A stretch of DNA of 50,783 nt from NCBI GenBank assembly GCA_017466825.1, contig JAFTTJ010000013.1:1-50783 (forward strand). Direction: 5' to 3'. Source of the DNA: Clostridia bacterium (GTDB taxonomy: Bacteria; Bacillota; Clostridia; Christensenellales; Borkfalkiaceae). Below are positions 4,508 to 36,270 of the stretch, one piece after another (positions within the stretch are counted from its first letter, which is position 1; every line of letters starts with the position of its first letter). The notes under the pieces were generated by a model, which was not told where the DNA came from, did not search any database, and saw only the letters and a list, made by a program, of their open reading frames with translations. Made by a program: the position numbers and the translations under genes.

Positions 4508-4632
4508 GAAAAGGTTTATATACTTCGCAAAAGAGCGTTACTGCTTTTAGTTTTCGACCCCAATGACCAACAAGGTCTATTGTGTCCGTCAACTAAAAGC
4601 GAGCCTTCTTTTGCTCGCATCTAAAACTTTTC
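4508..4632 (+). repeat. structured repeat R1, copy B
   Basis: A 125-nt element. P1 is GAAAAG-GTTTA with TAAAA-CTTTTC (4508-4518/4622-4632, one G.A mismatch); P2 is CGC-AAAAGA-GCG; P3 is GCTTTTAGTT with AACTAAAAGC, capped by TGACCAACAAGGTCTA; P4 is GCGAGCC...GCTCGC. It has the same architecture as copies A, C, D and E but different stem sequences. Confidence 0.75.
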
Positions 4633-4691
4633 ACAAAATTTTACTTAAAAGGAAAAGGGTTCGCAATAAGCGAGCAAAGCGAGCGTTATTC

Positions 4692-4746
4692 TTGGCTATG
4701 GAAAAGGGTATAATGAAAAAAATTTAATAAAAATTTCCATAGCCAA
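4692..4746. repeat. 13-bp perfect inverted repeat with 29-nt loop
   Basis: TTGGCTATGGAAA (4692-4704) pairs perfectly with TTTCCATAGCCAA (4734-4746). The loop holds a TATAAT-like stretch. It lies in the 490-bp gap between the tRNA and the ABC gene, downstream of R1 copy B. No other feature explains it. Confidence 0.6.
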
Positions 4747-4877
4747 ATTCCGCATATAAAACGCAAACGAAGTATTAAAAACGCCCAAGGCATTGTCAGA
4801 CGCAAAACGCCGTTTACGGCAAGGCTTAAAAACGCCAAAAAGCAACCTATAGTTGCATAAATGCAATATATAATTAC

Positions 4878-4906
4878 TTGACTATTGCTATGCTTCGTGC
4901 TATACT
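4878..4906 (+). promoter_or_regulatory. promoter of the ABC exporter gene
   Basis: TTGACT at 4878-4883, 17-nt spacer and TATACT at 4901-4906, followed by a short leader and a GGAAGGG ribosome site before the ATG at 4932. Confidence 0.7.
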
Positions 4907-4931
4907 TTTTTAAAAAAACGGGAAGGGAAAA

Positions 4932-6650
4932 ATGGAAAAAGATAAAGTTTGCATAAAAAAATACACCCGTCAATTTTACAAAAATAACGGTTGGCTATTT
5001 TTTATTGCTTTAATACAAACGCTTTTTGAAGGGGCTGTAATGCTAGTTATATCTTGGCTATTGCAACAACTCGTCGATTTGGCGAGTGGCTCTACGAACG
5101 GCTTAAATTTACTTCAACTTACCATAGTTGCGTTGGTGGTTTTGGCGCTTTCAATTATTTCAAGCGTGATAACCTACCACACAAGGCCAAAATTCATAGC
5201 GCGTGGAATGGCGCAGTATAAAGAGTACGTTTTTGAAAAGTTAACCAAAAAGAGCATATCCGCCTTTTCGGCAGAAAACACGACGAGTTATATTTCGGCG
5301 CTTACAAACGATTTAGCAAGCATTGAAAAGGGCTATTTAGAAAATATTTTCACTTTGATATTACATATTTTTATGTTCGTAGGGGCTTTTGCTATGATGA
5401 TTATTTACAGCCCCCTACTTACTTTAATAGCCGTAGGGCTCACCATTTTGCCCCTTATCGTAACCCTTTTGACGGGCAATAAAGTTGCCGAAGCCGAGAG
5501 TAAACTTTCAAAAGAAAACGAAGGATATACCCTTTCAATAACCGACAGTTTAAACGGTTTTTCGGTAATTAAGTCCTTTAAAGCCGAGAAAAAAACCTTG
5601 CAAATTTTTATTGAAAACCTTAAAAGAATCGCTTCGGTGCAGGGATATAAAGAAAAAATGAAGGTTTTAGTGCAATCGCTTAGTTCGATTACGGGTATAG
5701 TCGTCCAAATAGGAGTGTTTATATTCGGCGTACTTTTATCCATTATGGGTTACGGCGTAACCGCAGGTACTACTATAATTTTCGTACAACTTATGAACTA
5801 CGTATTGCAACCGATCGGCGTAGTGCCAACCTGCCTTGCCGAAAGAAAAGCGGCTAAAGCGCTTATTCAAAAGACTGCAACTAAGTTAGAAGAAAACGTC
5901 CGCAAGGAAGTAAAAGGCGAAAAAATCACTTTGAAAAAAGGGATTGAAATCAAAGGCCTTTCGTTTAGTTACGAAGAAGAAAAGCCCGTGTTAAATGACG
6001 TAAATTGCTTTTTTGAAGTGGGCAAAAAATACGCCCTTGTAGGAGCGTCGGGTAGCGGAAAGAGTACTTTTTTACGACTTTTGACTGCTTCCTATCCTAA
6101 TTATAGCGGACAAATTTTATACGACGGCGTAGAACTGAAAGATATTTCAAGCGAAAATCTTTACGACGCCGTGAGCGTTATTCAACAAAACGTATTCGTT
6201 TTTAACGCTAGCGTAAAGGATAATATTACTATGTTTAGCGAATTTCCGCCCGAGCAAATCGAAACCGCCGTGCGCCTTTCGGGGCTTGCGACTTTGGTTG
6301 AAGAAAAAGGCGAAGATTACCTTTGCGGAGAAAACGGGGTTGGGCTTTCCGGTGGTGAAAAACAACGCGTTTCGATAGCGAGAAGCCTGCTTAAAAAGGC
6401 GCAAATTTTACTCGTTGACGAAGGTACTGCCGCGCTTGACAAGGAAACTGCTCACCAAGTTTCAAACGCAATATTGGGGCTTGACGGCGTTACCGAAATA
6501 ATCATAACGCACGCTTTAGAAGAGAGTTTGCTTAAAAAATACGACGGCATTTTAACCATGAAAGGCGGACGTATTATAGAAAGTGGAACTTTTGACGAAT
6601 TAATGGATAAAAAAGGTTATTTTTATTCGTTATTTACTATTTCGCAGTAA
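4932..6650 (+). CDS. ABC exporter half-transporter (membrane domain fused to ATPase)
   Basis: A 572-residue type IV ABC half-transporter. Residues 1-310 hold about six membrane helices; the ATPase follows with Walker A GASGSGKST (about 372), Q-loop VIQQNVF, signature LSGGEKQRVSIARS (about 474), Walker B ILLVDEGTAALD and an H-loop ITHALEE. The Walker B end reads DEGTAALD instead of the usual DEATSALD, so the position after the catalytic Glu is Gly. It probably works as a homodimer in the cytoplasmic membrane exporting a drug, lipid or peptide; the substrate cannot be read. It sits alone with its own promoter and no partner gene. Start supported by GGAAGGG. Confidence 0.9.
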   Translation: MEKDKVCIKKYTRQFYKNNGWLFFIALIQTLFEGAVMLVISWLLQQLVDLASGSTNGLNLLQLTIVALVVLALSIISSVITYHTRPKFIARGMAQYKEYVFEKLTKKSISAFSAENTTSYISALTNDLASIEKGYLENIFTLILHIFMFVGAFAMMIIYSPLLTLIAVGLTILPLIVTLLTGNKVAEAESKLSKENEGYTLSITDSLNGFSVIKSFKAEKKTLQIFIENLKRIASVQGYKEKMKVLVQSLSSITGIVVQIGVFIFGVLLSIMGYGVTAGTTIIFVQLMNYVLQPIGVVPTCLAERKAAKALIQKTATKLEENVRKEVKGEKITLKKGIEIKGLSFSYEEEKPVLNDVNCFFEVGKKYALVGASGSGKSTFLRLLTASYPNYSGQILYDGVELKDISSENLYDAVSVIQQNVFVFNASVKDNITMFSEFPPEQIETAVRLSGLATLVEEKGEDYLCGENGVGLSGGEKQRVSIARSLLKKAQILLVDEGTAALDKETAHQVSNAILGLDGVTEIIITHALEESLLKKYDGILTMKGGRIIESGTFDELMDKKGYFYSLFTISQ

Positions 6651-6682
6651 AAAACGTTAATTGAAAAAGGCAAAATAAATAA

Positions 6683-6735
6683 AGTCTCCCTTGTGTAAAG
6701 GGAGATGCCACGCAAAGCGTGGCAAAGGGATTGTA
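6683..6735 (-). repeat. palindromic two-hairpin repeat (CTCCCTT family), left copy
   Basis: CTCCCTTGTGTAAAGGGAG forms hairpin 1, GCCACG-CAAAG-CGTGGC forms hairpin 2, and AAGGGATTGT closes the unit. It is the inverted counterpart of the unit at 7155-7203, sharing a 19-nt identical hairpin 1. The tail AAAGGGA doubles as the ribosome site of the DUF559 gene. Confidence 0.75.
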
Positions 6736-7095
6736 ATGCAAAGGAAACATAATAAAAATCTCGTTCCTAAAGCAATAACGCTAAGAAAGAATATGACCAA
6801 GGAAGAAAGACGGCTTTGGTATGATTTTTTGCGCGCCTATCCAGTCCGTTTTTTAAGGCAAAAAGTTTTAGGAAATTATATCGTTGATTTTTATTGTGCC
6901 ACGGCGCAACTAGTTATCGAACTTGACGGTTCGGGGCATTATACTTCTGACGGCGAGCGATACGATAACGAAAGAACCATTTTTCTTGAAGAATACGGCT
7001 TAACGGTTGTTAGAATACCTAATACGGAAATACATAAAAATTTTAAAGGCGTTTGCGAATATATTGATGGTATTGTAAAACAATCTCTAGTTTAG
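6736..7095 (+). CDS. DUF559 endonuclease-like protein
   Basis: A 119-residue protein starting at the ATG at 6736; an upstream ATG at 6691 lies inside the flanking repeat and is rejected. The sequence follows the DUF559 (Vsr/MutH-like) pattern: LRKNMTKEERRLWYDFLR at the start, RFLRQKVLGNYIVDFYC in the middle, then VIELDGSGHY with the Asp of the PD-(D/E)XK-type core and TVVRIPNTEI at the end. DUF559 members are small putative nucleases often found singly. Its ribosome site AAAGGGA is supplied by a palindromic repeat, and related repeats follow the gene in inverted orientation, suggesting gene and repeats form one module. Target unknown. Confidence 0.85.
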   Translation: MQRKHNKNLVPKAITLRKNMTKEERRLWYDFLRAYPVRFLRQKVLGNYIVDFYCATAQLVIELDGSGHYTSDGERYDNERTIFLEEYGLTVVRIPNTEIHKNFKGVCEYIDGIVKQSLV

Positions 7096-7103
7096 TAGAA
7101 CAA

Positions 7104-7135
7104 AAGGCTCCCTTTTCGCAAGGGAGCCTTTTTTT
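7104..7135 (+). terminator. terminator of the DUF559 gene
   Basis: GGCTCCC pairs with GGGAGCC around TTTTCGCAA, followed by seven T. The stem resembles hairpin 1 of the flanking repeats. Confidence 0.85.
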
Positions 7136-7154
7136 AGCGATTTATAATATGAAA

Positions 7155-7203
7155 CAATCCTTCAGTCAGTAAAACTGACAGCTCCCTTTACACAAGGGAG
7201 CCT
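7155..7203 (+). repeat. palindromic two-hairpin repeat (CTCCCTT family), right copy 1
   Basis: Reads CAATCCTTCAGTCAG...CTGACAGCTCCCTTTACACAAGGGAGCC in pieces: hairpin 2 is AGTCAGTAAAACTGACA and hairpin 1 is CTCCCTTTACACAAGGGAG. It is inverted relative to the copy at 6683-6735. Confidence 0.75.
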
Positions 7204-7233
7204 TTTTAAGATTCGTAATTATTATAGCGAATA

Positions 7234-7283
7234 ACAATCCCCCAGTCAGTAGTGCTGACGTATCCCTTTTCGCAAGGGGGACT
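7234..7283 (+). repeat. palindromic two-hairpin repeat (CTCCCTT family), right copy 2
   Basis: Same architecture as the unit at 7155: CAATCCCCCAGTCAG, loop, CTGACG, then ATCCCTTTTCGCAAGGGGG. The hairpin loops differ while pairing is kept. Confidence 0.7.
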
Positions 7284-7348
7284 TTTATATATGCGACGTA
7301 ATTTAATAGAAAATAAAAAGATAAATTCTTCTTTACTTTTTAAAATCG

Positions 7349-7377
7349 TTGACTTTTTAAAGGTCAACTACTATAAT
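7349..7377 (+). promoter_or_regulatory. pheST promoter with overlapping inverted repeat
   Basis: TTGACT at 7349-7354, 17-nt spacer and TATAAT at 7372-7377. TTGACTTTTTAAAGGTCAA (7349-7367) is an imperfect palindrome covering the -35 box, a possible operator. The 90-nt leader contains a CTATAAA/TTTATAG hairpin (7400-7433) but no T-box sequence. Confidence 0.7.
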
Positions 7378-7467
7378 ATAAGAGTTATATTATATAAATC
7401 TATAAACGGCGTTTAAAAAGCGACGATTTATAGCCAAAATCGCTCTAAAAGAGTAGGAGAAAAAAAT

Positions 7468-8505
7468 ATGAAAGAAAAATTAGACAGTTTGCTCCGTGAC
7501 GGCGAACAAGCCGTTTTAAACGCAAAAACCGCCGAAGAATTGCAAAAAGTAAATAGCGATTTTCTCGGTAAACAAGGCGCTATAAGCGAACTTTTAAAAG
7601 CCCTTCCTAAAATGGACGCGGCTCTTCGCCCCGAAATGGGCAAGGCAATCAATCTCGTTAAAAACCAACTCAAGGCAAAAATTGACGAGAGAATGGAAGA
7701 AGTTGAACTTCTCGCCCTTTCCGTGCCAGAAGATTTCGACTGTACTATTCCGAGCATTGCGCCAAAGTCGGGCGGTCTTCATCCCATAACTCAAATGTGT
7801 TACGACTTAAACGACGCTTTCCGTTCAATGGGATTCCAAGTATTTTCAGGCCCTGAAATTACTAGCGAAGGCTATGCTTTCGACAACCTTAACTTCCCCG
7901 AAAACCACCCTGCGAGAGAGAGTATGGACACCTATTGGATTGCGGGACACGATAGCGGAAAGGCACAGGACAAACTCTGTCTTCGCCCCCACTTAACGGG
8001 CGATAGCGTAAGGTATATGCAAACGCATAAACCCCCGTATAGGTTCGTTTATCCGGGTAGAGTATACCGTAACGAAACGACGGACGCTCGCCACGAACGC
8101 GCCTTTTTCCAATACGAAGCCCTTATCGTAGATAAAGATTTTACCTTTACTTCGGGTAAAGTTATGATTAAAACTATTCTTTCAAAGGTGTTCGGTAAAG
8201 ACGTACCCGTAAGAATGAGAGCGGGCTTTTTCCCCTTCGTTGAGCCGGGTTTTGAAATCGATATGGGATGTCTCGTTTGCGGTGGCAAAGGATGTAGCGT
8301 TTGTAAAAACGTTGGCTGGATAGAAATTATGCCCGGTGGTACGCCCCACCCCAACGTTCTTCGCTCGGCAGGGCTCGATCCCGACGAGTATACCGGTTTT
8401 TACGTAAATATCGGTCTTGACAGACTCGTTATGATGCGTTACGGCGTGGACGACGTAAGACTTTTCCACAGTGGCGACTTAAGATTTTTAAAACAGTTCC
8501 GTTAA
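7468..8505 (+). CDS. pheS: phenylalanine--tRNA ligase alpha subunit
   Basis: A 345-residue class II synthetase subunit. The N-terminal 90 residues form the coiled-coil tRNA-binding arm. The catalytic core has motif 2 VYRNETTDARHERAFFQYE and motif 3 VNIGLDRLVMMRYGVDDVR, and the CLVCGGKGCSVC segment seen in many bacterial PheS. With PheT it forms the alpha2-beta2 enzyme charging tRNA-Phe. The ribosome site is AGGAG. pheT follows after 12 nt, and the cognate tRNA-Phe gene lies 3 kb upstream. Confidence 0.97.
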   Translation: MKEKLDSLLRDGEQAVLNAKTAEELQKVNSDFLGKQGAISELLKALPKMDAALRPEMGKAINLVKNQLKAKIDERMEEVELLALSVPEDFDCTIPSIAPKSGGLHPITQMCYDLNDAFRSMGFQVFSGPEITSEGYAFDNLNFPENHPARESMDTYWIAGHDSGKAQDKLCLRPHLTGDSVRYMQTHKPPYRFVYPGRVYRNETTDARHERAFFQYEALIVDKDFTFTSGKVMIKTILSKVFGKDVPVRMRAGFFPFVEPGFEIDMGCLVCGGKGCSVCKNVGWIEIMPGGTPHPNVLRSAGLDPDEYTGFYVNIGLDRLVMMRYGVDDVRLFHSGDLRFLKQFR

Positions 8506-8517
8506 GGAGAAAGAAAG

Positions 8518-10959
8518 ATGAAATTATCATTAAATTGGATTAAAGATTACGTAGAAATTCCTGCGGATATGGATTTGAGCGCTCTCGCTCACGACCTTAC
8601 TATGTCTACCGTTGAAGTAGAAGGCGCGGAAAATTTAGCAGAGCGATTTGAAAAAATTATCGTAGGCGAAATAAAAGAAGTAAACCCCCACCCCAACGCC
8701 AACAAACTCAGAGTTTGTAAGGTGGATATCGGCGACGGCGAAATTAAAGATATCGTATGTGGCGGTAGCAACCTTGAAATCGGTCAAAAGGTAGTAGTCG
8801 CTTGCCCCGGCGCTATGGTGCGTTGGCACGGTGAAGGCGATCTCGTTGAAATTAAAAACGCCGAACTTCGCGGTGTGCCGAGTTTCGGTATGATTTGCGC
8901 TAGCGAAGAAGTAGGACTCGGCGACCTTTTACCGTCTAATAGCGACCACGAAATTATGGACGTTACGGTTTTCGGCGCAAAGGCGGGTACGCCCGTTTCG
9001 GTTGCGCTCGGTCTTGACGACGTTATTTTAGAAATAGACAACAAGTCCATGACTAACCGCCCCGACCTTTGGGGACACTACGGCATTGCAAGGGAAATCG
9101 CCGCTTTATACGATCTTCCTTTAAAGCCTATTGAAAAAATCGTACCTAAAACAACTCAAAGTTTACCCATTGAAATTCACGATGCGGACAGATGCCCCCG
9201 TTATATCGGCGCAAAAATCGAAGGGCTCGGCGTAAAACCCGCCCCGTTTGAAATGCAAAGTCGTATTTGGAGAGTCGGCATGCGCCCAATCAACGCGCTC
9301 GTCGACGTAACTAACTACGTTATGCTCGCCGTAGGACAACCTACTCACGTTTTCGATAGCAATCACATTATCGACCACGTTGAAGTTCGCCTTGCAAAGG
9401 AAAATGAAAAATTACGCCTTTTAAACGACAAGGAAATAACCCTTTCCACCGACGATTTAGTTATCGCCGACAAGGAAGGCGCAGTTGCGCTTGCAGGCGT
9501 TATGGGTGGCGCAAAAGATTCCGTTCTTCCCGAAACGGACAGCGTTATTTTAGAAGTTGCCAACTTTAATTCGCAAAGCGTTAGAAGGACGGCTCTTCGT
9601 TACGACAACCGTACCGAAGCGTCGGCAAGATACGAAAAGGCTATCGACCCCGAGCGTTGCGACCAAGCCTTGGCGCTCGCTGTAAAACTCTTTGGCGAAA
9701 TCTACCCCGATATGAAGATTACGGCGTTTAACGACAACTACGTTAAACCCCTTGAAAGAAAGAAAATCGACGTTGAAATAAGTTGGCTTACGAGAAGGCT
9801 CGGCAAGGAATTCCCCAAGGAACTCGTCGCTAAAAAACTTGGAATAATCGGCTTCGACGTGGACTTTGACGGCGAAATGATGCATGTAACCGTTCCCACT
9901 TGGCGTTCTACCGGCGACGTTTCTATTAAGGAAGACGTAATGGAAGAAGTGGCAAGACTTTACGGCTACGAAAACTTCGAGCCCACTCCCATTTCGATAA
10001 CTTACGACGGCGGTGTAAACCAACTCGATTACGACCTTGTGAGAAAGGTTAAAGAATATCTCGCTTTCCGCGCGGACATGCAAGAAATCTTTACCTACCC
10101 TTGGATGAGCGACGAATTCGTAAACGCGCTCTTCCCGTCGACGGACAAAATGCTCGCTTTGGCAACACCCCCGTCGCCTACCGAAAGGCTCGTAAGAAGT
10201 TCTTTACTTCCCAATATTTGCAAAGTTATCGTTAAAAACGAACACAACTTTGAAGAATTTGATATCTTTGAAGAAGCCAAAGTATTTATCGACGACGATT
10301 ATACTTCAAATTATAAAAATGAAAAATTACCTTGCGAAAAGCGCCGTTTAGGTATGGCTTTCGTAGGTAAATTCGCTAATATTTCGACTATTTTCCGTCG
10401 CGCAAAGGGCGTCGTTGAAAATATGCCACGCTACACCCACATGGAAGGTTTTACCTTTAAAAAGGTTGAAAAGCCGTGCTGGGCGGATGGCGTAGTTTGG
10501 CAAAATATCTACCTTGGCGATAAAAAGATTGGCGATATAGCCCTTCTCGGCGCAAAACAGGCTAAAAACTGCGGTATGAAAGTGCTTTCCGCCGTTTTAG
10601 TAGAAATGGATATGGAAGAATTCGTACCCTTTAAGTCAAGGACTAACCGCTATGAAAGACTTCGCGAGTTCCCCCTTAACGAATACGACGTTTCGTTTAT
10701 CGTCGATTCGCTCGTAACTTTTGACGCTATTTCGACGGCAGTTATGCAAGTCGCAACTCAAAAGCCCCTTTTAAGAGCAGTTAAATTCGTTGACGAATAC
10801 AAGGGTGAAAAGATCCCCCAAGGTAAAAAGTCGGTAACTATCCGCCTTGAAATCGGCTCTGACGAAAAAACTCTTACTGGCGCTGAAATCGATAGCGTTG
10901 CTAACGCCGTTATGGACGTGATTGAGAGTGGGCTTAAAGGGGAAGTTCGTCGCTCTTAA
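8518..10959 (+). CDS. pheT: phenylalanine--tRNA ligase beta subunit
   Basis: An 813-residue protein of normal length. The order is an N-terminal core, an EMAP-type OB-fold tRNA-binding domain around residues 40-150 (EIKEVNPHPNANKLRVCKV), the B3/4 domain near 210-380 (where editing of mischarged Tyr-tRNA occurs in the family; IWRVGMRPINALVDVTNYVM), the B5 domain near 405-475, the catalytic-like domain, and the FDX-ACB anticodon-binding domain at about 720-813 (FPLNEYDVSFIVD). It has a strong AAGGAG ribosome site. Its stop codon lies inside the first stem of R1 copy C, so the end of the pheST mRNA should fold into that structure. Confidence 0.97.
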   Translation: MKLSLNWIKDYVEIPADMDLSALAHDLTMSTVEVEGAENLAERFEKIIVGEIKEVNPHPNANKLRVCKVDIGDGEIKDIVCGGSNLEIGQKVVVACPGAMVRWHGEGDLVEIKNAELRGVPSFGMICASEEVGLGDLLPSNSDHEIMDVTVFGAKAGTPVSVALGLDDVILEIDNKSMTNRPDLWGHYGIAREIAALYDLPLKPIEKIVPKTTQSLPIEIHDADRCPRYIGAKIEGLGVKPAPFEMQSRIWRVGMRPINALVDVTNYVMLAVGQPTHVFDSNHIIDHVEVRLAKENEKLRLLNDKEITLSTDDLVIADKEGAVALAGVMGGAKDSVLPETDSVILEVANFNSQSVRRTALRYDNRTEASARYEKAIDPERCDQALALAVKLFGEIYPDMKITAFNDNYVKPLERKKIDVEISWLTRRLGKEFPKELVAKKLGIIGFDVDFDGEMMHVTVPTWRSTGDVSIKEDVMEEVARLYGYENFEPTPISITYDGGVNQLDYDLVRKVKEYLAFRADMQEIFTYPWMSDEFVNALFPSTDKMLALATPPSPTERLVRSSLLPNICKVIVKNEHNFEEFDIFEEAKVFIDDDYTSNYKNEKLPCEKRRLGMAFVGKFANISTIFRRAKGVVENMPRYTHMEGFTFKKVEKPCWADGVVWQNIYLGDKKIGDIALLGAKQAKNCGMKVLSAVLVEMDMEEFVPFKSRTNRYERLREFPLNEYDVSFIVDSLVTFDAISTAVMQVATQKPLLRAVKFVDEYKGEKIPQGKKSVTIRLEIGSDEKTLTGAEIDSVANAVMDVIESGLKGEVRRS

Positions 10960-11081
10960 AGGCTTATATACTTCGCCCCGCGTCGTTTACTGCAAGTGCT
11001 TGCCGACTGGGATGACCAACAAGGTCTATCCCATCCGTCAACCCCTTGCGAGCCTAGCGGTGCTCGCATCTAAGCCTTTAA
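10956..11081 (+). repeat. structured repeat R1, copy C (overlaps pheT stop)
   Basis: A 126-nt element. P1 TTAAAGGCTTA pairs perfectly with TAAGCCTTTAA (10956-10966/11071-11081) and contains the pheT TAA. P3 is GCAA/TTGC plus GGGAT/ATCCC capped by GACC-AACAA-GGTC; P4 is GCGAGC/GCTCGC. Confidence 0.75.
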
Positions 11082-11085
11082 CAGG

Positions 11086-11210
11086 TTAAAGGCGTATAAA
11101 CTACGCAATACTGCGTTTCTGTTTTATTGTCAAGACTTCGGTGACCAACAAGGTCTACCAAATCCTTGCCAATAAAACGAGCCTTGTCTTGCTTGTTTTT
11201 ACACCTTTAA
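11086..11210 (+). repeat. structured repeat R1, copy D
   Basis: A 125-nt element 4 nt after copy C. P1 TTAAAGGCGTA pairs with TACACCTTTAA (one C.A mismatch), P2 is ACGCAATACTGCGT, and P3 GTTTTATTG pairs perfectly with CAATAAAAC beneath the GACC-AACAA-GGTC cap. Confidence 0.75.
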
Positions 11211-11225
11211 ATCAATTTGAAAAGA

Positions 11226-11380
11226 GATGACCAACAAGGTCTATCCCATCCGTCAACCCTTTGCGAGCCTAGCGGTGCTTGCATCTAAGCCTTTAACAAG
11301 TTAAAGGCGTATAAACTACGCAAAAGCGCGTTACTGCATTAAAGTCTACTGCAAAGCCTTGCTTGTATTAAAAACTACAA
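11226..11380 (+). repeat. truncated R1 copies F and G
   Basis: 11226-11297 repeats the 3' half of copy C nearly exactly, from the GACC cap to TAAGCCTTTAA. From 11302 a new 5' half starts (TTAAAGGCGTATAAACTACGC) and then decays. The join suggests recombination between tandem R1 units. Confidence 0.65.
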
Positions 11381-11386
11381 AAGATA

Positions 11387-11415
11387 AAAAAGGCTCGGGT
11401 TTACCGAGCCTTTTT
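11387..11415. terminator. bidirectional terminator
   Basis: AAAAAGGCTCGG pairs with CCGAGCCTTTTT, with A- and T-runs on both sides, between the pheST/R1 array and the convergent DUF1893 gene. Confidence 0.85.
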
Positions 11416-11421
11416 AATGTT

Positions 11422-11844
11422 TTATTTGGTTAAACTTTCAAGTGTTCGTTTTATTTGTTCTAATGCCAAAGTTGGGCTATAAGTCGATAAAACGGCGGTT
11501 TCAATAGGGCAAAGCCCCGTTTTTGAGCGGTTTTGCACGTTTAAGACCAACTCGTCGTAATAGACTTTTACGCCGTTTTCATTTAAAAGGTTTAAAGCGT
11601 GTTTAGATATGACTTTTGCGTACACGGCTTTAACTTTTAATAGTATATACAAAAACCCTGCGCCCTTACCGACGACTTTGTCGGCTACTGAAAAGGCAGA
11701 AAAATCAGTTCCGCTTTCTAAAAATTCTAATAGTGGTTTTACACCGCGTTTAGTAGACGAAAAGACCTTTTCGCCGTTTACAAAAACGCAAGTTAAGCCG
11801 TCTTTTTCAAGCAAGGCAATAGCCTTTTTTAAATCGTTAGACAT
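11422..11844 (-). CDS. DUF1893 family protein
   Basis: A 140-residue protein from the ATG at 11844; an in-frame ATG five codons upstream lies within the preceding gene and is less likely. The pattern matches DUF1893: VFVNGEKVFSSTKRGVKPLL near the start, AFSVADKVVGKGAGFLY in the middle, and LVLNVQNRSKTGLCPIE towards the end. The family belongs to the cytidine-deaminase-like fold; its role is unknown. The ATG lies 1 nt beyond the stop of the aldo/keto reductase gene, so the two form an operon. It contains an in-frame copy of the CTATAAGTCGAT motif near 11474. Confidence 0.85.
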   Translation of the reverse strand: MSNDLKKAIALLEKDGLTCVFVNGEKVFSSTKRGVKPLLEFLESGTDFSAFSVADKVVGKGAGFLYILLKVKAVYAKVISKHALNLLNENGVKVYYDELVLNVQNRSKTGLCPIETAVLSTYSPTLALEQIKRTLESLTK

Positions 11845-11845
11845 A

Positions 11846-21288: not shown

Positions 21289-21406
21289 AAAGTTAGGCTA
21301 TAAGTCGGTTAATTGATTGTTTTAGCAAAACCACCAGCAAAATTTAAGTATAAAAGATTAAAAAACGCCCGAGCGGAAAAGTTATTCCGCTCGGGCGTAA
21401 GTTTTT
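21289..21406 (+). repeat. 118-bp direct repeat, left copy (with terminator)
   Basis: Matches 22749-22866 at all but a few positions. It contains the CTTATAG motif (reverse orientation, 21294-21314) and a terminator whose stem CGCCCGAGCGGAA pairs with TTCCGCTCGGGCG (21366-21397). The two copies bracket exactly one gene. Confidence 0.9.
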
Positions 21407-22748: not shown

Positions 22749-22866
22749 AAAGTTAGGCTATAAGTCGGTTAATTGATTGTTTTAGCAAAACCGCCAGCAA
22801 AATTTAAGTATAAAAGATTAAAAAACGCCCGAGCGGAAAGAGTTTTCCGCTCGGGCGTAAGTTTTT
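22749..22866 (+). repeat. 118-bp direct repeat, right copy (with terminator)
   Basis: Second copy of the block at 21289-21406. Its terminator stem (22826-22857) also has an A-run on the left, so it can serve both the lipoprotein gene and the convergent PH-like gene. Confidence 0.9.
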
Positions 22867-25362: not shown

Positions 25363-26385
25363 ATGGCAAATGTAAAAGTTGCAATTAACGGTTTCGGAAG
25401 AATCGGCCGTCTTGCATTCAGACAAATGTTCGGCGCAGAAGGTTATGAAGTTGTTGCTATCAACGACCTTACCAGCCCTTCAATGCTCGCTCACCTTCTT
25501 AAATACGACTCGGCTCAAGGCAGATACGCTCTTGCAGACACCGTTTCGGCAAACGACGAAGAAGGCACTATCACCGTAAACGGCAAAACTATCAAAATTT
25601 ACGCTGAAAAAGACGCTGTTAACTGTCCTTGGGGCGCTCTTGACGTAGACGTAGTACTTGAATGTACCGGTTTCTACTGCTCAAAGGCTAAATCTCAAGC
25701 GCACATTGACGCAGGCGCAAAGAAAGTTGTTATTTCTGCTCCCGCAGGTAACGACCTTAAAACTATCGTTTATAGCGTTAACGAAAACACCCTTGATGCA
25801 AGCGACGTAATCATCTCTGCTGCATCTTGTACTACTAACTGTCTTGCTCCTATGGCAAACACTCTTAACAAACTCGCTGAAATCAAGAGCGGTATCATGA
25901 CGACCGTTCATGCTTACACCGGCGACCAAATGGTACTTGACGGTCCTCACAGAAAGGGCGATTTAAGACGTGCTAGAGCGGCTGCTGTTAACATCGTTCC
26001 TAACTCTACCGGCGCTGCAAAGGCTATCGGTCTTGTTATTCCCGAACTTAACGGCAAACTTATCGGTTCTGCTCAAAGAGTTCCCGTTCCTACCGGTTCT
26101 ACCACTTTATTAGTTGCAGTTGTTAAGGGTAACGTTTCTAAAGAAGATATCAACGCTGCTATGAAGGCTGCTTCTTCTGCTTCTTTCGGTTACACCGAAG
26201 AACCCCTTGTATCTTCTGATATTATCGGTATCACTTACGGTTCACTTTTCGATGCTACTCAAACCATGGTTAAGTACATCCCCGAAACCGACGAAACTCA
26301 AGTACAAGTTGTTGCTTGGTACGATAACGAAAACTCTTATACTAGCCAAATGGTTAGAACTATTAAGTATTTCGCTCAAATCTAA
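25363..26385 (+). CDS. gap: glyceraldehyde-3-phosphate dehydrogenase
   Basis: A 340-residue glycolytic enzyme. The NAD fold begins with [13 protein letters not shown], the catalytic Cys is in [12 protein letters not shown] (about 155), the active-site His in TVHAYTGDQ (about 182), and [15 protein letters not shown] ends the protein as usual. It oxidises glyceraldehyde-3-phosphate with phosphate and NAD. Codon use is more uniform than in the neighbours (many GCT, CTT, ACC), as expected for high expression. The stop codon lies in the first stem of R1 copy E. No pgk follows. Confidence 0.98.
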
Positions 26386-26508
26386 GGCTTTATAAACATC
26401 GTTATACTTTGTTTCTAAAAAGGGTAAGCGACTGGGATGACCAACAAGGTCTATCCCATCCGCTTACCCTTTTTGAGCCTGGTCTAACTCGTTTCTAAAA
26501 CCTTAGAT
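26380..26508 (+). repeat. structured repeat R1, copy E (overlaps gap stop)
   Basis: A 129-nt element. P1 ATCTAAGG pairs with CCTTAGAT and includes the gap TAA. P3 AAAAAGGGTAAGCG pairs perfectly with CGCTTACCCTTTTT (14 bp), then GGGAT/ATCCC and the GACC-AACAA-GGTC cap. P4 is GAG...CTC. Same architecture as copies A-D but the most divergent stems. Confidence 0.75.
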
Positions 26509-26533
26509 AGCACTTTAAAAAAGGATGCAACGT

Positions 26534-26581
26534 CACGTTGCTGACCAACAAGGTCTATCCCATCCGCCAACCCCTTGCGAG
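26534..26581 (+). repeat. truncated R1 copy H
   Basis: CACGTTGCTGACCAACAAGG followed by the TCTATCCCATCC segment matches the cap and 3' side of P3 in other R1 copies; it then runs straight into R2. The 5' part and P4 are missing. Confidence 0.6.
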
Positions 26582-26743
26582 CGCGTCGCAAATCGGCTTT
26601 TTGTCAGCCAACCGCAAAATGCGGTTAGCAAAACTTTATAGCCGTTTGCTCCTTTTCCCAAAAATTCTTTTGCAGAGCAAAATTATTTTCGGGATATATG
26701 GTAAAGAACGCCGTAGGGGAGGGGCTTGCTCCTCCCGTCAAAC
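26582..26743 (+). repeat. structured repeat R2, copy 1
   Basis: 162 nt, nearly identical to 36281-36442. Stems include GCAAATCGGCT with AGCCGTTTGC (one bulge), AACCGC-AAAAT-GCGGTT, a long imperfect hairpin around CTTTTGC-AGA-GCAAAA, and GGAG-GGGCTTG-CTCC. Both R2 copies directly follow an R1 element. Confidence 0.85.
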
Positions 26744-26853
26744 GAAAACCTTATTGGGCGGAATACAGCCTCGTCCCCTATGAAATCTTATTAAATAAGA
26801 TTTTCAAAAAATATCGTCACCTTGTCTAACAAGGTCTACTAAGTCTTTAAAGG

Positions 26854-28883: not shown

Positions 28884-28939
28884 TTGACATATTACCATTT
28901 TGGTAGTAAAATAAACTAAAAACTACCAAAAATGGTAGT
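28884..28939. promoter_or_regulatory. divergent operator region with two palindromes
   Basis: O1 TACCATTTTGGTA (28893-28905) lies in the spacer of a plus-strand promoter TTGACA (28884-28889) and TAAAAT (28907-28912). O2 ACTACCA-AAAA-TGGTAGT (28922-28939) follows the predicted start site. The position of O1 would block RNA polymerase when the HTH protein binds. Confidence 0.75.
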
Positions 28940-28955
28940 AACAATTAGGAAACCA

Positions 28956-29381: not shown

Positions 29382-29386
29382 CAACT

Positions 29387-29817
29387 ATGTGTGTAAACTT
29401 AAAAAGAGCAATGTTTTTTATGAAAGAGTATTTTGACAAGATAAGAGAAGATCTTAACTTGAAATACAATATTATCGACGGCAAAAAAGCCGAAGTTTTT
29501 GGCTCGGTAACGTATAAAGGTTTAAAGAGCGAGATAGCGCTTATCGCAAAGGTGTATGCCGAAGGTTGGGCGTATTTTAAACTCGTTTTTGATAAAATTG
29601 ATAAAAATTTACAAAGTTTGAGTTTAGTTCAGTCTTTAAATAATGAAGATCCTTTTTTACGGCTTTTATCAGGGACGATGGTTTTTTAGAACTAGCGCAC
29701 GTAGTAAGGGTTTATAACGAAAAATTTTTGGGCGAATATTCTGCCGAATTTATGAAAAGGGCGATACTCGTTTTAAAAAACAAAAACTTAAAAAAATTAG
29801 ACGAACTTATTCAATAA
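29387..29817 (+). CDS. YbjN-like paralogue needing a -1 frameshift
   Basis: The zero frame (29387-29689) matches the preceding paralogue up to NNEDPF, then stops shortly after. The -1 frame from 29659 to the TAA at 29815-29817 continues the homology (DDGFLELAHVVRVYNEKF, EYSAEFMKRAIL, then NKNLKKL against the paralogue's DGYLEASQTVVVYDESG, KYGSEFLSRLVK, GNMKKL). The join lies on T-TTT-TTA (29653-29659), phased as CCT TTT TTA, a classic -1 slippery heptamer. The product would be about 130-143 residues, close to the paralogue's 141. Either programmed frameshifting or loss of one T from a run of seven. The start is uncertain (29387, 29411 or 29420). Confidence 0.6.
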
Positions 29818-29823
29818 CGCAAC

Positions 29824-29851
29824 AAAACCCGCCGAAAAAGGGCGGGTTTTT
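29824..29851 (+). terminator. terminator of the YbjN-like pair
   Basis: AAAACCCGCC pairs with GGCGGGTTTT and is followed by T residues; it sits just after the -1-frame stop rather than the zero-frame stop. Confidence 0.85.
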
Positions 29852-29915
29852 AATATAAAAATTACTACGTTAAAAATCTTTGGTGAAAATGAGATAAAAA
29901 TTATTAAAAAGCGTA

Positions 29916-29944
29916 TTGACAAGTAAAAAAAGTCGTGATAGAAT
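29916..29944 (+). promoter_or_regulatory. promoter of lipoprotein gene 30022
   Basis: TTGACA (29916-29921), 17-nt spacer, TAGAAT (29939-29944); AGGAG precedes the ATG. Confidence 0.75.
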
Positions 29945-30021
29945 ATGCGCGCAAAATCGTATATATATAAAGGCTAGTCGTAGCGCAAAAACCGCATTAT
30001 GGCAAGCCGTATAGGAGATTT

Positions 30022-32232: not shown

Positions 32233-32358
32233 TAAAAACGGATATTTACTACGATAAAACGGCTATAATTTGCGCCTAGAAAAAAATAAAATTTGCTTTT
32301 TACAACCCCCCCGAGAAAAAGGCTTTTAACGGCGCAGAAAGTTCGGAAAAATTAAACT

Positions 32359-32388
32359 ATGCAAGGCGAAAAATCGCCTTGCATTTTT
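32359..32388 (+). terminator. terminator downstream of lipoprotein gene 30022
   Basis: GCAAGGCG pairs with CGCCTTGC and is followed by ATTTTT. Confidence 0.8.
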
Positions 32389-32431
32389 GTATAAAAAAAC
32401 GCATAAAAACCCCTGTAAAATCCTTGTTTTT

Positions 32432-32523
32432 TGTGGAAAAAGGTATCGCCAATGTGGATAAGTCGGGGGTTTTGGCAAAAGTTATCCACATTTATCCACA
32501 CAAACGAACGTTCGTGTGGAAAA
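32432..32523. promoter_or_regulatory. cluster of five DnaA boxes
   Basis: TGTGGAAAA (32432-32440), TGTGGATAA (32453-32461), TTATCCACA (32482-32490), TTATCCACA (32492-32500) and TGTGGAAAA (32515-32523). Three are perfect DnaA boxes and two differ at one position. A 12-bp palindrome ACGAACGTTCGT (32504-32515) lies between the last two. It is upstream of the cwlD-like gene and 32 kb from the dnaN-rsmG intergenic region. Confidence 0.8.
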
Positions 32524-32602
32524 GTCGATTTTTAGCGAAATCGCCCGTTTTGTTATAAAATTTAAGGTTAGTAAATAATATAATACAAAGGGTGTATAAG
32601 CG

Positions 32603-33304
32603 TTGGTTTTTTCACGAAAAAAGGCTAAAAAAATAACCGTTGCCGTAATGGTTTTTACGGCTACTTTTCTCGCCGTTTTTTATCTTAGTAAAATTTTAGC
32701 AAGTCAAGTGTTTAAAACGCACGCAAGTTTGTTTACCGTCGTTATCGACGCGGGGCACGGCGGTATCGACGGCGGAGTTTCGGGGGTTAACACTAAGGTC
32801 AAAGAGAGCGACCTAAATTTGGATATCGCCAAAAAACTCAAAGCCGAATTTGAAAGCGCAGGGATAAAGGCTATTATGACTCGCTCGTCCTACGGTGGGC
32901 TTTACGGCACTACGGCAAAGGGCTTTAAACTTAGGGATATGAAAAAGCGGATAGAAATTATAAATTCGGCAAACGCCGACTTAATGATTTCGGTGCATTT
33001 AAACTGCTATTCGTCGCCTAATAGGCGTGGAGCAACGACCTTTTTCGGTCAAGGCAAAACGCAAGGTCAGCGCCTTGCAAGTTGTATTCAAAAGCGCTTT
33101 AACTTATTGAGTGGGCAAACGAGAGATTTTAACCCCTTAAAGGGAGATTATTATCTCTTAAACTATTCGGCTTGTCCGTCGGTAATTTGCGAGTGTGGGT
33201 TTTTGTCTAGCCCGGAAGACGAAAAATTGCTTTTAACCGAAGACTATCGCAAAGAAATCGCAAAGAGCATTTTTTTAGGCGCGGTTGAATTTTTGCTAGA
33301 ATAA
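32603..33304 (+). CDS. cwlD: N-acetylmuramoyl-L-alanine amidase, CwlD-like
   Basis: A 233-residue protein starting with TTG at 32603 (AAGGGTG 9 nt upstream). An N-terminal membrane helix (about 10-30) is followed by an Amidase_3 domain: VVIDAGHGGIDGG with the first Zn ligand His, a SDLNLDIAKKL helix, ISVHLNCY with another His, and ICECGFLSSPEDE with the catalytic Glu. The length and single anchor match CwlD, which trims stem peptides for muramic-lactam formation in spore cortex, but a vegetative amidase is possible. The DnaA-box cluster lies in its upstream region. Confidence 0.88.
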   Translation: MVFSRKKAKKITVAVMVFTATFLAVFYLSKILASQVFKTHASLFTVVIDAGHGGIDGGVSGVNTKVKESDLNLDIAKKLKAEFESAGIKAIMTRSSYGGLYGTTAKGFKLRDMKKRIEIINSANADLMISVHLNCYSSPNRRGATTFFGQGKTQGQRLASCIQKRFNLLSGQTRDFNPLKGDYYLLNYSACPSVICECGFLSSPEDEKLLLTEDYRKEIAKSIFLGAVEFLLE

Positions 33305-33327
33305 AGCGGTAAAATTTTGAATTTAAG

Positions 33328-33354
33328 AGCGGATAGGATTTTCTATCCGCTTTT
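33328..33354 (+). terminator. terminator of the amidase gene
   Basis: AGCGGATAG pairs with CTATCCGCT, followed by TTTT. Confidence 0.8.
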
Positions 33355-33424
33355 GTTATATATTTGCTTGAAAAACGGGCTAAAAAGTGATAAAATCTAA
33401 TTATAAAGACCAAAAGGGGAAGAG

Positions 33425-36028
33425 ATGTTTACTTTTACCGACGAGCAAAAGCGAGTAATTTACGAAAAAACTAAAAATCAACTTTTACTTGCTGGCGCAG
33501 GCTCGGGCAAGACTTTTACCGTGGCGCATAAAATAGCCGAGAGAATTAGGTCGGGCGTTTTGCCTGAAGAGATTCTCTGCCTTACTTTTACCGTAAAGGG
33601 CGCGGGCGAAATAAAAGACGACGTTGAAAAATACTGCAATAAAGCGGGGGTAAACGTCTTTACCATACACAGTTTTTGCTACTTTATTATTAAGGAATAT
33701 TTAAAAGAGAGTGGGGCGTTTAACGAGCCCACCGTCGCCGACGAAGTAGACTCAGGAGAGATTTTGGCAAACGTATTAAGGGTTTTTGCGTTAGACGGCG
33801 AGTACGAATTAGTCGACGAAATGCCACTTTTGCCCGAAAGGCAACTTGCAAAAATAATGTCCGAAATCAAGCACGAGCGAGATTTGCTAGGTTACCCTTA
33901 TACATCAGAAGAAGGCTACGGCAAGACGATTAGAAAACTCTTTGCCGACAGTTCGGCTTTTAACTCACTCTTTTCGGTGAGAAAGTCCGGCGTAAAAATA
34001 ACCGATTATTCGCTAATTAAACTTTTAAAGGAAAAAGGCGACTCTTTCGCCCTTGCTTATCAACGCAGTTTAAGGTCGTCAAGACTTGTCGACTTTGACG
34101 ATTTACTCTTTTTTGCAAAACAACTTATTTTAGAAGGCGTTTACAAAAAACCTGCCTATAAGTTGATTATCGTTGATGAAATGCAAGATACGAGCATGCT
34201 TGAATACCAAATTGCAAAGAGTTTTTTTGATAAAGCGCAAATTTTAATGTGTGGCGATCCTTATCAAACTATATACTCTTGGCGCGGTAGTGAGCCTTTC
34301 GCTATTATGGAAGACTTTGAAAAAAACTTTTTTGCCGAAAGGATAACTTTGAGCGGAAATTACCGCTCGACCGATCTCTTGACCTACGCGGGCAGGTACT
34401 ATCTTGCCGAGAGTTTTCAAGGTAAAATACCCTATCCGCCTGAGCCTAAAACGGACGGGGAAGAAAAGATAGACCTAGTAAAGTGCTTTGACGAAGTTGA
34501 AGAAGCCGATTATCTTTTTGATCTTATAAGTTCATACGACGGCGACCGCTCGTCAATTTGCGTTATGGCAAGGGCAAACCGCTATCTTACTAATTTATAT
34601 AAAAAGTTAGAGCGCAAAAATTTGTCGGTGGTTAAAAGCGAGCGCATACCATTTTTTACCGCCGATTCCGACTTGCAGTTTTACAAAAAACCCGTTATCA
34701 AAGATTTTTTGAGTTTTTTGAGATTGCTAGTAAACCCCTTTGACAACTCGGCGTTTGAGAGAATTGCTTTAAAGTACGTAAGGGGAATAGGAAAAGAAAC
34801 CGTTTCCGCTATGACTGACTTTGGCGCGTACGGGATTTCGCTCTCGGCGTTTTTGCAAGCCGACGCATACGTTTACGGCGACCCCTATTATTCGCTAATA
34901 TCCGCCTATAAGTCGATTAACGTAGTTATTTACGACCTAGAAACGACGGGGCTTGACCTTGAAAAGGACGAAATTATACAAATTTCCGCCCTTAAAATAG
35001 GCACGGGCGAAACCTTTAATAGGTTCGTTATTCCCACTTGCGAAATTTCAAAAAAGGCGATATCCACCCACGGTTACGACTTAAAGTATATAACTGAAAA
35101 CGGTGGCGCTAGCGCGAGCGAAGTTTTAAAAGATTTCCGCTCTTTCGTAGCAAACGCCGTTCTCGTTGGGCATAACAGTTCGTCATTTGACGATAATATT
35201 TTAAACAGGCAGTTAAAGTCCGTAGGGCTTGATTTGGATAAAAATCTTCGTTACGACACCTTGGTTTTAGCCCAAGCCGTTTTGCCTAATCTCGGCAATT
35301 ATACCTTGGAAAACTGCGCTAAAAACTTCGGTATAGTAAACGAAAGAGCGCACGACGCCTTTGCCGACGTCAAAGCGACTGCAAAACTCTTTGAAAAACT
35401 ATTAGGCGATTTTTATATCCCCCAAACGGACGCAAGAAAGAGAATCGTTTCTCAAAAATCCCCAAAATTTAAAGATTTTTACGAAAAATTTAAACAAATG
35501 CAATTAGCGTTAAAAGACGGAAAGACGCTCGAACTCGTCAAGTTTATAAACGACGAATTCGGCGTGCTTGAATTAAACAAACGCCCGTCGGACAGAGAGT
35601 CTGCAAACGACCTTTTTAGAGCATTGAAAGGAATTGAAAACGCAACGGAAAAGTCGCTTTGGCTACGCTCGTTTTTAAGCGACGCGTCGCTATCGGGCAG
35701 TCAAATGGACTTGATTATCAAAAAGCACGGCAAAATTCCGCTGATCACCGTTCATCAATCAAAAGGTTGCGAGTTTGATTTGGTTGTTTTGGTCGGCGCG
35801 GACGAAAACGAGTTGCCGTCTTACGGGGCTCGTCAAAGCGGTAGCGAAGACGAAGAAAAGCGAATTTTTTACGTAGCGCTATCTAGAGCGAAGAAAAAAT
35901 TCGTCGTTACCTACCCCGCCAATAAGGTTTACGGGCAAAACGTTTACCCTAAAAACCCAACCCCGTACGTAAGCCGTTTGCCAAAAACTGCCGTAAACGC
36001 CTTTTCCCCTTACGCCAAAAAGGACTGA
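33425..36028 (+). CDS. UvrD-like helicase with inserted DnaQ-type exonuclease
   Basis: An 867-residue SF1A helicase. Motif I AGAGSGKT (about 20-27), Ia CLTFTVKGAGEI, motif II IIVDEMQDTS (about 249), III MCGDPYQTIYSWRGS, IV GNYRSTD; then after an insertion motif V VHQSKGCEFD (about 775) and VI FYVALSRAKKK. The insertion (about 498-665) is a DEDDh exonuclease: VIYDLETTGLDL, LVGHNSSSFDDNIL and HDAFADVKATAKLF supply the acidic residues and His. So 3'-5' unwinding and 3'-5' degradation are joined within the second helicase lobe. Ribosome site GGGGAAGAG. A role in repair is inferred. An in-frame CTATAAGTCGATTA motif (34913-34931) marks the left junction. Confidence 0.88.
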   Translation: MFTFTDEQKRVIYEKTKNQLLLAGAGSGKTFTVAHKIAERIRSGVLPEEILCLTFTVKGAGEIKDDVEKYCNKAGVNVFTIHSFCYFIIKEYLKESGAFNEPTVADEVDSGEILANVLRVFALDGEYELVDEMPLLPERQLAKIMSEIKHERDLLGYPYTSEEGYGKTIRKLFADSSAFNSLFSVRKSGVKITDYSLIKLLKEKGDSFALAYQRSLRSSRLVDFDDLLFFAKQLILEGVYKKPAYKLIIVDEMQDTSMLEYQIAKSFFDKAQILMCGDPYQTIYSWRGSEPFAIMEDFEKNFFAERITLSGNYRSTDLLTYAGRYYLAESFQGKIPYPPEPKTDGEEKIDLVKCFDEVEEADYLFDLISSYDGDRSSICVMARANRYLTNLYKKLERKNLSVVKSERIPFFTADSDLQFYKKPVIKDFLSFLRLLVNPFDNSAFERIALKYVRGIGKETVSAMTDFGAYGISLSAFLQADAYVYGDPYYSLISAYKSINVVIYDLETTGLDLEKDEIIQISALKIGTGETFNRFVIPTCEISKKAISTHGYDLKYITENGGASASEVLKDFRSFVANAVLVGHNSSSFDDNILNRQLKSVGLDLDKNLRYDTLVLAQAVLPNLGNYTLENCAKNFGIVNERAHDAFADVKATAKLFEKLLGDFYIPQTDARKRIVSQKSPKFKDFYEKFKQMQLALKDGKTLELVKFINDEFGVLELNKRPSDRESANDLFRALKGIENATEKSLWLRSFLSDASLSGSQMDLIIKKHGKIPLITVHQSKGCEFDLVVLVGADENELPSYGARQSGSEDEEKRIFYVALSRAKKKFVVTYPANKVYGQNVYPKNPTPYVSRLPKTAVNAFSPYAKKD

Positions 36029-36055
36029 CAAACTTAAATTTTAAACTAAAAGTCC

Positions 36056-36072
36056 GCCTATAAGCCGAAAAA
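36056..36072 (-). repeat. CTTATAG motif copy (36056)
   Basis: GCCTATAAGCCGAAAAA, reverse orientation, 28 nt after the helicase stop. Confidence 0.6.
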
Positions 36073-36145
36073 CGCTATAAATAAATTCTTTAAGAATTTA
36101 CAAGCGTTAAAAACCTTGACAAAATAAGGGTAATTAAGTACAATA

Positions 36146-36270
36146 TTTAAGTCTTATATACTTCGCAAAAGTGCGTTTCTGTTTTATCGCCAAGACCTCG
36201 GTGACCAAAAAGGTCTACCAAACCCTTGTCGCCAAAACGAGCCTTCTTTTGCTCGTATCTAAAACTTAAA
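36146..36270 (+). repeat. structured repeat R1, copy A
   Basis: A 125-nt element. P1 TTTAAGT-CTTA pairs with TAAA-ACTTAAA (one C.A mismatch at the same place as in copies D and E), P2 CGC-AAAAGT-GCG, P3 GTTTT/AAAAC plus CAAG/CTTG capped by GACC-AAAAA-GGTC, P4 CGAGC...GCTCG. Confidence 0.75.

What the first reader, a model, noticed from the sequence alone, without database searches (positions are those of the whole stretch)
4508..36270. R1: a 125-nt structured element with compensating stem changes, possible new ncRNA family
Seen: five full copies (4508-4632, 10956-11081, 11086-11210, 26380-26508, 36146-36270) plus truncated ones. All share P1, P2, P3 and P4 and the constant cap GACC-AACAA-GGTC-TA. 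P1 is GAAAAG/CTTTTC, TTAAAGGCTTA/TAAGCCTTTAA, TTTAAGT/ACTTAAA or ATCTAAGG/CCTTAGAT, and P3 is GCTTTTAGTT/AACTAAAAGC, GTTTTATTG/CAATAAAAC or a 14-bp stem in copy E: sequence changes while pairing stays. P1 keeps a mismatched A at the same 3' position in four copies. All copies are on the plus strand. Inference: the fold is under selection, as RNA (3' end element or ncRNA) or as a ssDNA mobile hairpin. I know no named family with this layout.
Basis: partly seen in the sequence, partly recalled or inferred. Interest (0 to 1): 0.9.

Follow-up and report, generated by a model that had tools for sequence, protein, structure and literature searches.

The report
Leading-strand hairpin repeats at gene ends
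A gut bacterium and its relatives carry dozens of copies of a folded DNA repeat that sits mostly at the ends of genes on one replication strand, and whose outer arms usually fit the site they lie in, which points to an undescribed kind of spreading DNA hairpin rather than an ordinary RNA gene.

Summary
Five copies lie at the stated places; sequence-only alignment of 20 copies gives 42 pairs, 33 with kept double changes. No Rfam family matches. It is a genome-wide family: 72 hits in the host genome, hits in 25 of 61 genomes searched (own included) and, with a wider model, in 30 of 398 genomes of the phylum (own included).

Four results shape the reading. (1) 51 of 51 arrays checked lie on the GC-skew (leading) strand; where skew flips in one contig, the strand flips. 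(2) Of 79 arrays with held surroundings, 72 follow a co-oriented gene; 53 start within 20 nt of its stop codon. (3) In well-paired columns G.T and A.C are equally rare (32 and 26 of 3382), unlike tRNA (78 and 0 of 1048); wider sets are less clear. (4) Same-type copies at different sites carry different P1 arms, fitting their own site (own better in 36 of 42 pairs, never worse).

Best explanation: a non-autonomous DNA hairpin that spreads into gene ends, its arms re-perfected by fold-back copying during replication. No mobilising enzyme was found and there is no expression evidence. An RNA 3'-end function is the main rival. It resembles REP or bcr repeats but met no membership test.

The parts
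4508..4632 (+). R1 unit A, about 30 nt behind the T-run that follows tRNA-Phe; P1 GAAAAG/CTTTTC
10956..11081 (+). R1 unit B; P1 5' arm includes the pheT stop codon (gene ends 10959)
11086..11210 (+). R1 unit C, head-to-tail behind B
11219..11295 (+). R1 unit lacking its 5' part
11301..11346 (+). 5' part of a further R1 unit
26380..26508 (+). R1 unit D; P1 5' arm is the last codon and stop of gapdh (gene ends 26385) plus 2 nt
26533..26581 (+). R1 unit lacking its 5' part, running into a repeat module
26582..26746 (+). 3' module behind a truncated R1 unit (96% identical to 36281-36445)
26823..26848 (+). cap remnant (2 mismatches)
36146..36270 (+). R1 unit E, directly behind a consensus-like promoter of glnA (TTGACA 36116, TACAAT 36139, by eye); no unit there in four relatives
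36281..36445 (+). 3' module behind unit E

Best explanation
R1 is a non-autonomous, chromosomally dispersed DNA hairpin element, the local branch of a wider family in the phylum. Shown: the hairpin with conserved internal loops, near-identical cores at separate loci, head-to-tail arrays of mixed unit types, leading-strand orientation in the window's lineage, placement at stop codons or behind T-runs, absence from one orthologous site in four relatives, and P1 arms that mostly fit their own site. Inferred: when the leading strand is copied, the new strand (same sense as the element) folds back on its own 5' arm and copies it, so the 3' arm comes to complement the host sequence before the element. 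That would perfect stems without G.U intermediates and favour one orientation. How cores move is inferred only as ssDNA- or replication-associated insertion; the enzyme is unknown.
For: Copies: 72 hits in own genome; 39 full units in the own-genome stretches held, the two commonest types with 9 and 8 near-identical copies at 8 separate sites each, left identity ending at about TTTAAAG. Empty site: the helicase-glnA spacer is about 161, 90, 139 and 137 nt in four relatives against 603 in the window. Strand: 51 of 51 arrays on the skew-positive strand in 14 contigs or segments, P 1.5e-6 if strand followed gene orientation; 41 of 42 contigs with two or more hits have one strand only, the exception being G036:C4, where orientation flips with skew. 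DNA pairing: G.T 32, A.C 26 of 3382 well-paired cells against tRNA 78 G.T, 0 A.C of 1048. Site tracking: P1 own arms 85.2% Watson-Crick, arms swapped between random copies 54.7%; in 42 same-type pairs whose 5' arms differ at two or more of nine positions own beats swapped in 36, ties in 6, loses in 0. At gapdh the P1 5' arm is the gene's last codon and stop; G000 ATCTAAGG/CCTTAGAT and G006 ATTTAAGG/CCTTAAAT match on both sides. Template switching can make and mend hairpins (PMC8794818, abstract and opening text read).
Against: No mobilising gene of the three tested tracks the family. Placement at stop codons of co-oriented genes would also follow from an RNA role. Diverged relatives beside rRNA and tRNA genes lie antisense to them, so they are probably not on the leading strand: the bias is not shown for the wider family. 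Class-wide copies show more G.T (30) than A.C (8). Core replacement by gene conversion inside resident arms would also give result (4). One pair with identical cores, both in one array of contig C8, has different 5' arms but the same 3' arm (a tie).
Confidence: 0.5

Rival explanations
1. R1 is an RNA-level 3'-end element: a structured 3' UTR placed at the stop codon that helps termination, blocks Rho or nucleases, or insulates neighbouring genes. Leading-strand placement reflects highly expressed genes.
For: 72 of 75 arrays with a called upstream gene follow a co-oriented one and 53 of 79 start within -20..+15 nt of its stop codon. Window arrays at 10956 and 26380 lie before a terminator-like hairpin at about 11387 and 26868 (by eye). 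In the G010 gapdh locus and several G021 loci a terminator-like hairpin sits between the outer P1 arms (by eye). Class-wide copies have more G.T than A.C.
Against: No excess of G.U over A.C in R1 itself; strand bias beyond gene orientation; 17 of the 26 arrays away from a stop codon lie behind a T-run; unit E is in a 5' leader; arms differ where cores hardly do.
Confidence: 0.25
2. Selfish or passive palindromes only: conversion between copies moves cores, quasipalindrome template switching perfects arms, and no dedicated transposition exists.
For: Same site, different unit types in related species (gapdh: G000, G006 and G008 share one type, G001, G002 and G010 differ, by eye); neighbouring units share P1.
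Against: No unit at the glnA site in four relatives; internal loops conserved far beyond the genus, which arm-perfecting alone would erase.
Confidence: 0.15
3. A site-specific recombination cassette family like attC, read as folded single strands by a tyrosine recombinase.
For: Arrays of mixed units, variable stems with conserved unpaired positions, strand bias. 36 of 41 genomes have weaker matches to the integrase model, as have all 14 control genomes.
Against: No integron integrase over the curated cut-off in 41 genomes; no conserved motif at the element's ends; units carry no genes.
Confidence: 0.05
4. IS200/IS605-type (REP/RAYT-like) element moved by a Y1 transposase.
For: Leading-strand sense, i.e. 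lagging-strand template, which IS608 and ISDra2 target (PMC6006769, start of abstract in search listing).
Against: Y1_Tnp not found in 6 of the 10 genomes with at least 20 R1 hits (several are incomplete MAGs); among 12 Y1 loci scanned only L139 holds an R1 unit, beside an IS200 with its own ends.
Confidence: 0.05

Closest known systems
bcr1 and other bcr repeats of the Bacillus cereus group
   Same: 100-400 bp intergenic repeats; bcr1 averages 39 copies per strain; MITE-like, mobility tied to repeats of a TTTAT motif (passages read in PMC6542083 and PMC3446304). R1 junctions carry TTTAA.
   Different: Sequences were not compared. R1 arms are site-specific, its units form mixed arrays, and it keeps to one replication strand and mostly to gene ends.
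REP/BIME palindromes with RAYT (Y1) transposases
   Same: Intergenic palindromes in clusters; single-strand transposition would give strand bias.
   Different: REPs are 20-40 bp and GTAG- or CGTC-tagged (PMC3733652, title and start of abstract in listing); R1 is about 125 nt, shows no such tag among its invariant columns, and Y1 genes do not track it.
Integron attC sites
   Same: Recombine as a folded single strand with little sequence conservation (PMC2727003, start of abstract in listing).
   Different: No integrase over the cut-off, no cassette genes, no conserved end boxes.
ERIC elements (recalled)
   Same: About 127-bp imperfect palindromes between genes, mover unknown.
   Different: From memory only; not compared here.

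Membership tests
Known Rfam RNA family | match at gathering score on the element | tested here: not met
   Whole window: only tRNA. Nine loci with diverged members: no hit on the elements. Sixteen phylum-level loci: no hit on the elements.
REP/RAYT (IS200/IS605) | Y1 transposase present in hosts | tested here: not met
   Not found in 6 of 10 genomes with at least 20 hits (G000, G002, G005, G010, G021, G031); several are incomplete MAGs.
REP/RAYT (IS200/IS605) | GTAG or CGTC tag at one end of a 20-40 bp palindrome | tested here: not met
   Not among invariant columns of 20 aligned copies; unit about 125 nt.
Integron attC | integron integrase (TIGR02249) | tested here: not met
   0 of 41 genomes over the cut-off; 36 of 41 have weaker matches, as do all 14 controls.
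Integron attC | GTTRRRY core site at the base (motif recalled) | tested here: not met
   No conserved end motif in A5; outer arms vary from site to site.
Group II intron-mobilised element | group II intron RT/maturase (TIGR04416) in hosts | tested here: not met
   0 of 41 genomes over the cut-off; weaker matches (E up to 1e-20) in 5, one of them in G000.
Classical DDE-type MITE | fixed terminal inverted repeats | tested here: not met
   End arms differ between same-type copies and fit the local flank.
Classical DDE-type MITE | direct target duplication | tested here: inconclusive
   Only looked at by eye at the glnA and gapdh sites.
Classical DDE-type MITE | related autonomous transposon with the same ends | not tested
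   No search for transposons with R1 ends was made.
bcr-type repeat | sequence similarity to bcr1-18 | not tested
   No bcr sequence was fetched.
Structured RNA | G.U pairs tolerated over A.C | tested here: inconclusive
   R1: not met, 32 G.T and 26 A.C of 3382 well-paired cells, 48 and 117 of 5147 over all. Wider sets lean the other way: 30 and 8 of 844, 18 and 11 of 624.
Structured RNA | discrete transcript | not testable with these tools
   No expression data for these genomes.

The most novel reading that the evidence does not exclude
A new class of mobile DNA hairpin with an inverted target-site signature. The core inserts at the ends of leading-strand genes, and the outer 3' arm is then written as the reverse complement of the host sequence just upstream, often the last codon and stop codon, by fold-back copying on the leading strand. 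The replication machinery thus both locks the element to its site and fixes its orientation. The wider family, with its conserved asymmetric internal loops, would be bound by a still unknown enzyme.
Probability: 0.3. Interest if true: 0.88.

Novelty: new variant of a known kind. Interest (0 to 1): 0.7.

Why it matters
Covariation is usually taken as proof of a functional RNA. Here a family with very strong covariation carries signs that the pairing is kept on DNA, by a process that also copies host sequence into the repeat. That is a warning for RNA-discovery pipelines and a natural test bed for template switching in replication. If the arms are re-templated at each site, insertion leaves an inverted rather than a direct duplication. 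Diverged members occur in many families of a bacterial phylum, so the unknown mover, or its absence, is a question that can be tested directly.

Tried and rejected
Y1 transposase, integron integrase and group II intron RT as movers: each searched across relatives, none tracks the family. Phage or plasmid carriage: no match for window 10956-11210 in the phage or plasmid collections, nor for one class-level member; one phylum-level member gave nothing in plasmids and two 26-nt weak matches (E 0.4) in phages. Viral contigs: two base-module patterns gave 0; the cap pattern gave 6 stretches, none matching model R2. An IS200 beside an R1 unit (L139) has its own ends. Rfam with permissive thresholds on 10900-11460 gave 21 weak matches, the best over the terminator-like end. 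Two script versions found too few units because the pattern was too strict, and one P1 test used wrong boundaries and gave a weak result (own better in 41, worse in 25 of 98 same-type pairs); it was redone with alignment columns. A first hand tally of 48 arrays was short; the recount gives 51. The pheT site could not serve for empty-site comparison because its protein is only 23-27% identical to that of relatives. Geobacter multicopy sequences were considered as kin; the class said to recur in other genomes has a different (CCYTC) make-up (PMC2700814, passages). Passages of PMC2267715 and PMC2864571 and a word search in PMC10969869 without hits gave nothing nearer. Ten paper searches found no description of this element; most subscription journals are not held.

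Limits of counts: genes come from a simple ORF caller. One search used 111 of the 214 hits of four genomes (55 of 72 own, 56 of 142 others), those whose surroundings I held. Four of its 79 arrays had no identifiable upstream gene. A T-run is only a sign of a terminator. Pairs share copies and are not independent. A2, A3 and A4 were fitted to the structure; A5 was not. In the tRNA control ARAGORN lists only standard pairs, which may hide mismatches. One search scored at most 52 candidates per genome and 150 of 369, so counts are lower bounds; wide searches used stricter filters.
Full report
WHAT IS THERE. The window is contig C3 of a 1.65 Mb, 39-contig genome, 83.6% complete. The five copies exist as described and fold far better than shuffles. 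The fold is one long hairpin: P1, internal loop TATAnAC-nnCG / CTnG-nnTCTA, P2, internal loop CGTTnCTG / CGAGCCT, P3, a third loop, P4 and the cap GACC-AAnAA-GGTC-TA. In 20 copies aligned by sequence alone the invariant columns fall mainly in the loops and cap, while 33 of 42 predicted pairs show kept double changes.

A FAMILY, NOT FIVE COPIES. A covariance model of the five copies (R1) finds 72 places in the own genome and matches in 25 of 61 genomes, own included; in the genus 13 of 15 have it, G007 and G011 do not. Three genomes of other genera have 44, 46 and 52 hits. Units stand head to tail at about 125-131 nt, with different stem types in one array, and last units are often cut off by fixed 3' modules; a shorter form spaced 85 nt also occurs. 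A model from 116 copies (R2) hits 15 of 291 genomes of the class, of which three (own and two) are of the window's family. A model from 43 aligned members, mostly of that wider set (R3), hits 30 of 398 genomes of the phylum; apart from the own genome all 29 lie outside the class, and no other same-class genome in that draw reached the threshold, so the spread is patchy. Of the 27 phylum loci read, most keep the asymmetric loops, e.g. TTGAAAAAC-TTCG / CTCG-TTTTTGAA, as class loci keep GATAAGC-nnCG / CTTG-CTTCT. That makes common descent more likely than mere long hairpins, although the weakest hits could be convergent. Some lie beside rRNA or tRNA genes, antisense to them (L248, L250, L318, L319, L326, L330).

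STRAND AND PLACE. Of 42 contigs with two or more hits in four genomes, 41 have one strand only; the exception, G036:C4, flips between 86 and 146 kb, where GC skew flips at about 137-140 kb. Over 14 contigs or segments with measured skew, 51 of 51 arrays are on the skew-positive strand; with 62-100% of genes on that strand, the chance of this if strand followed genes is 1.5e-6. Of 79 arrays whose surroundings I held, 72 follow a co-oriented gene, 3 an opposite one (one of these is the window copy behind tRNA-Phe, a gene the ORF caller cannot see), and 4 have none called; 53 begin within -20..+15 nt of the co-oriented stop codon, and of the other 26, 17 have a run of five or more T within 25 nt upstream. 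In nine arrays the called gene ends 13 nt into the element, which then supplies the stop codon. Unit E is an exception: it follows a consensus-like promoter of glnA, and the spacer there is about 90-161 nt in four relatives against 603 in the window.

DNA OR RNA. In all 46 pairs outside helix 4, G.T is 48 of 5147 cells, A.C 117 and C.T 390. In the 30 pairs with under 15% mismatch, G.T is 32 and A.C 26 of 3382. If single-stranded sense RNA were selected, G.U should far exceed A.C; 48 distinct tRNAs in held loci have 78 G.T and no A.C in 1048 pairs (with the caveat that ARAGORN draws only standard pairs). The wider sets are less clear: class-wide 30 G.T and 8 A.C of 844, phylum-wide 18 and 11 of 624.

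ARMS THAT FIT THE SITE. In one search, 39 full own-genome units fall into types; the two largest have 9 and 8 near-identical copies at 8 separate sites each, with left identity ending at about TTTAAAG. Taking each row's own P1 arms, 85.2% of the nine positions are Watson-Crick; with arms swapped between random copies 54.7%. Among same-type pairs (core at least 85% identical) whose 5' arms differ at two or more positions, own beats swapped in 36 of 42, ties in 6 and never loses. Examples with 97% and 95% identical cores carry GAAAAGGTT/AAACTTTTC against TTAAAGGCT/AACCTTTAA, and CTAAAGGCG/CCCCTTTAG against AAAAAGTCT/AAACTTTTT. Against this, two units of one C8 array with identical cores differ in the 5' arm but share the 3' arm. 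At gapdh the 5' arm is the last codon and stop of the gene plus 2 nt; four of eight genus members without R1 there end in the same ATY TAA, and the 3' arm follows the synonymous change between G000 and G006. So the 3' arm is the element-side part and tracks the host. Slow compensation does not suit cores that have hardly changed.

MECHANISM. Shown: spread, orientation, placement, local arms. Inferred: on the leading strand the nascent strand has the element's own sense; it makes the 5' arm first and can fold back on it when it reaches the 3' arm, which copies the host flank into the repeat. Template switching that makes and mends hairpins is described (PMC8794818, abstract and opening text read). 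Not shown: how cores travel. Y1 transposase, integron integrase and group II intron RT do not track the family, and no phage or plasmid record was found to carry it. Gene conversion of cores inside resident arms is a serious alternative for some sites, but not for the glnA site, which has no unit in four relatives.

COMPARISON. What it works like: dispersed intergenic palindromes such as REP/BIME, ERIC (recalled) and above all the bcr repeats (passages). Membership: none met (see table). Interest lies in the combination of strict strand, stop-codon placement, site-specific arms and internal loops kept far outside the genus.

Noticed in passing
window 8518-10959: The C-terminal 299 residues of PheT are only 23-27% identical to PheT in 21 of 22 related genomes (one had no match), while GAPDH is 94-96% identical in the five closest; the window's pheT may be horizontally acquired.
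   Followed up: no
window 26582-26746 and 36281-36445: A 165-nt repeat (96%) behind R1 units ends in GTAGGGGAGGGGCTTGCTCCTCC, resembling a GTAG-tagged REP.
   Followed up: partly
window 7071-7290: Three tandem repeats of about 75 nt, each with a hairpin and T-run, directly behind a DUF559 gene (6691-7095).
   Followed up: no
window 36479-36556: A further palindromic repeat (TGTCATTGCGAGCC ... GATCCCTTCGC ... ATGACG) between unit E and glnA.
   Followed up: no
window 21289-21406 and 22749-22866: A 118-nt repeat pair, 96% identical, 1460 nt apart.
   Followed up: no
G021 loci such as L148, and L179 (G010 gapdh): By eye, a terminator-like hairpin lies between the outer and inner P1 arms; in G021 its A-rich 5' flank recurs at several loci while the GC stem varies.
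   Followed up: partly
G000:C27:64062-64865: A reverse transcriptase-like frame (402 aa) below the group II intron cut-off.
   Followed up: no
L248, L250 (scanned); L252, L270, L275 (by eye): Diverged members lie beside 5S, 23S or 16S rRNA genes, antisense to them.
   Followed up: partly
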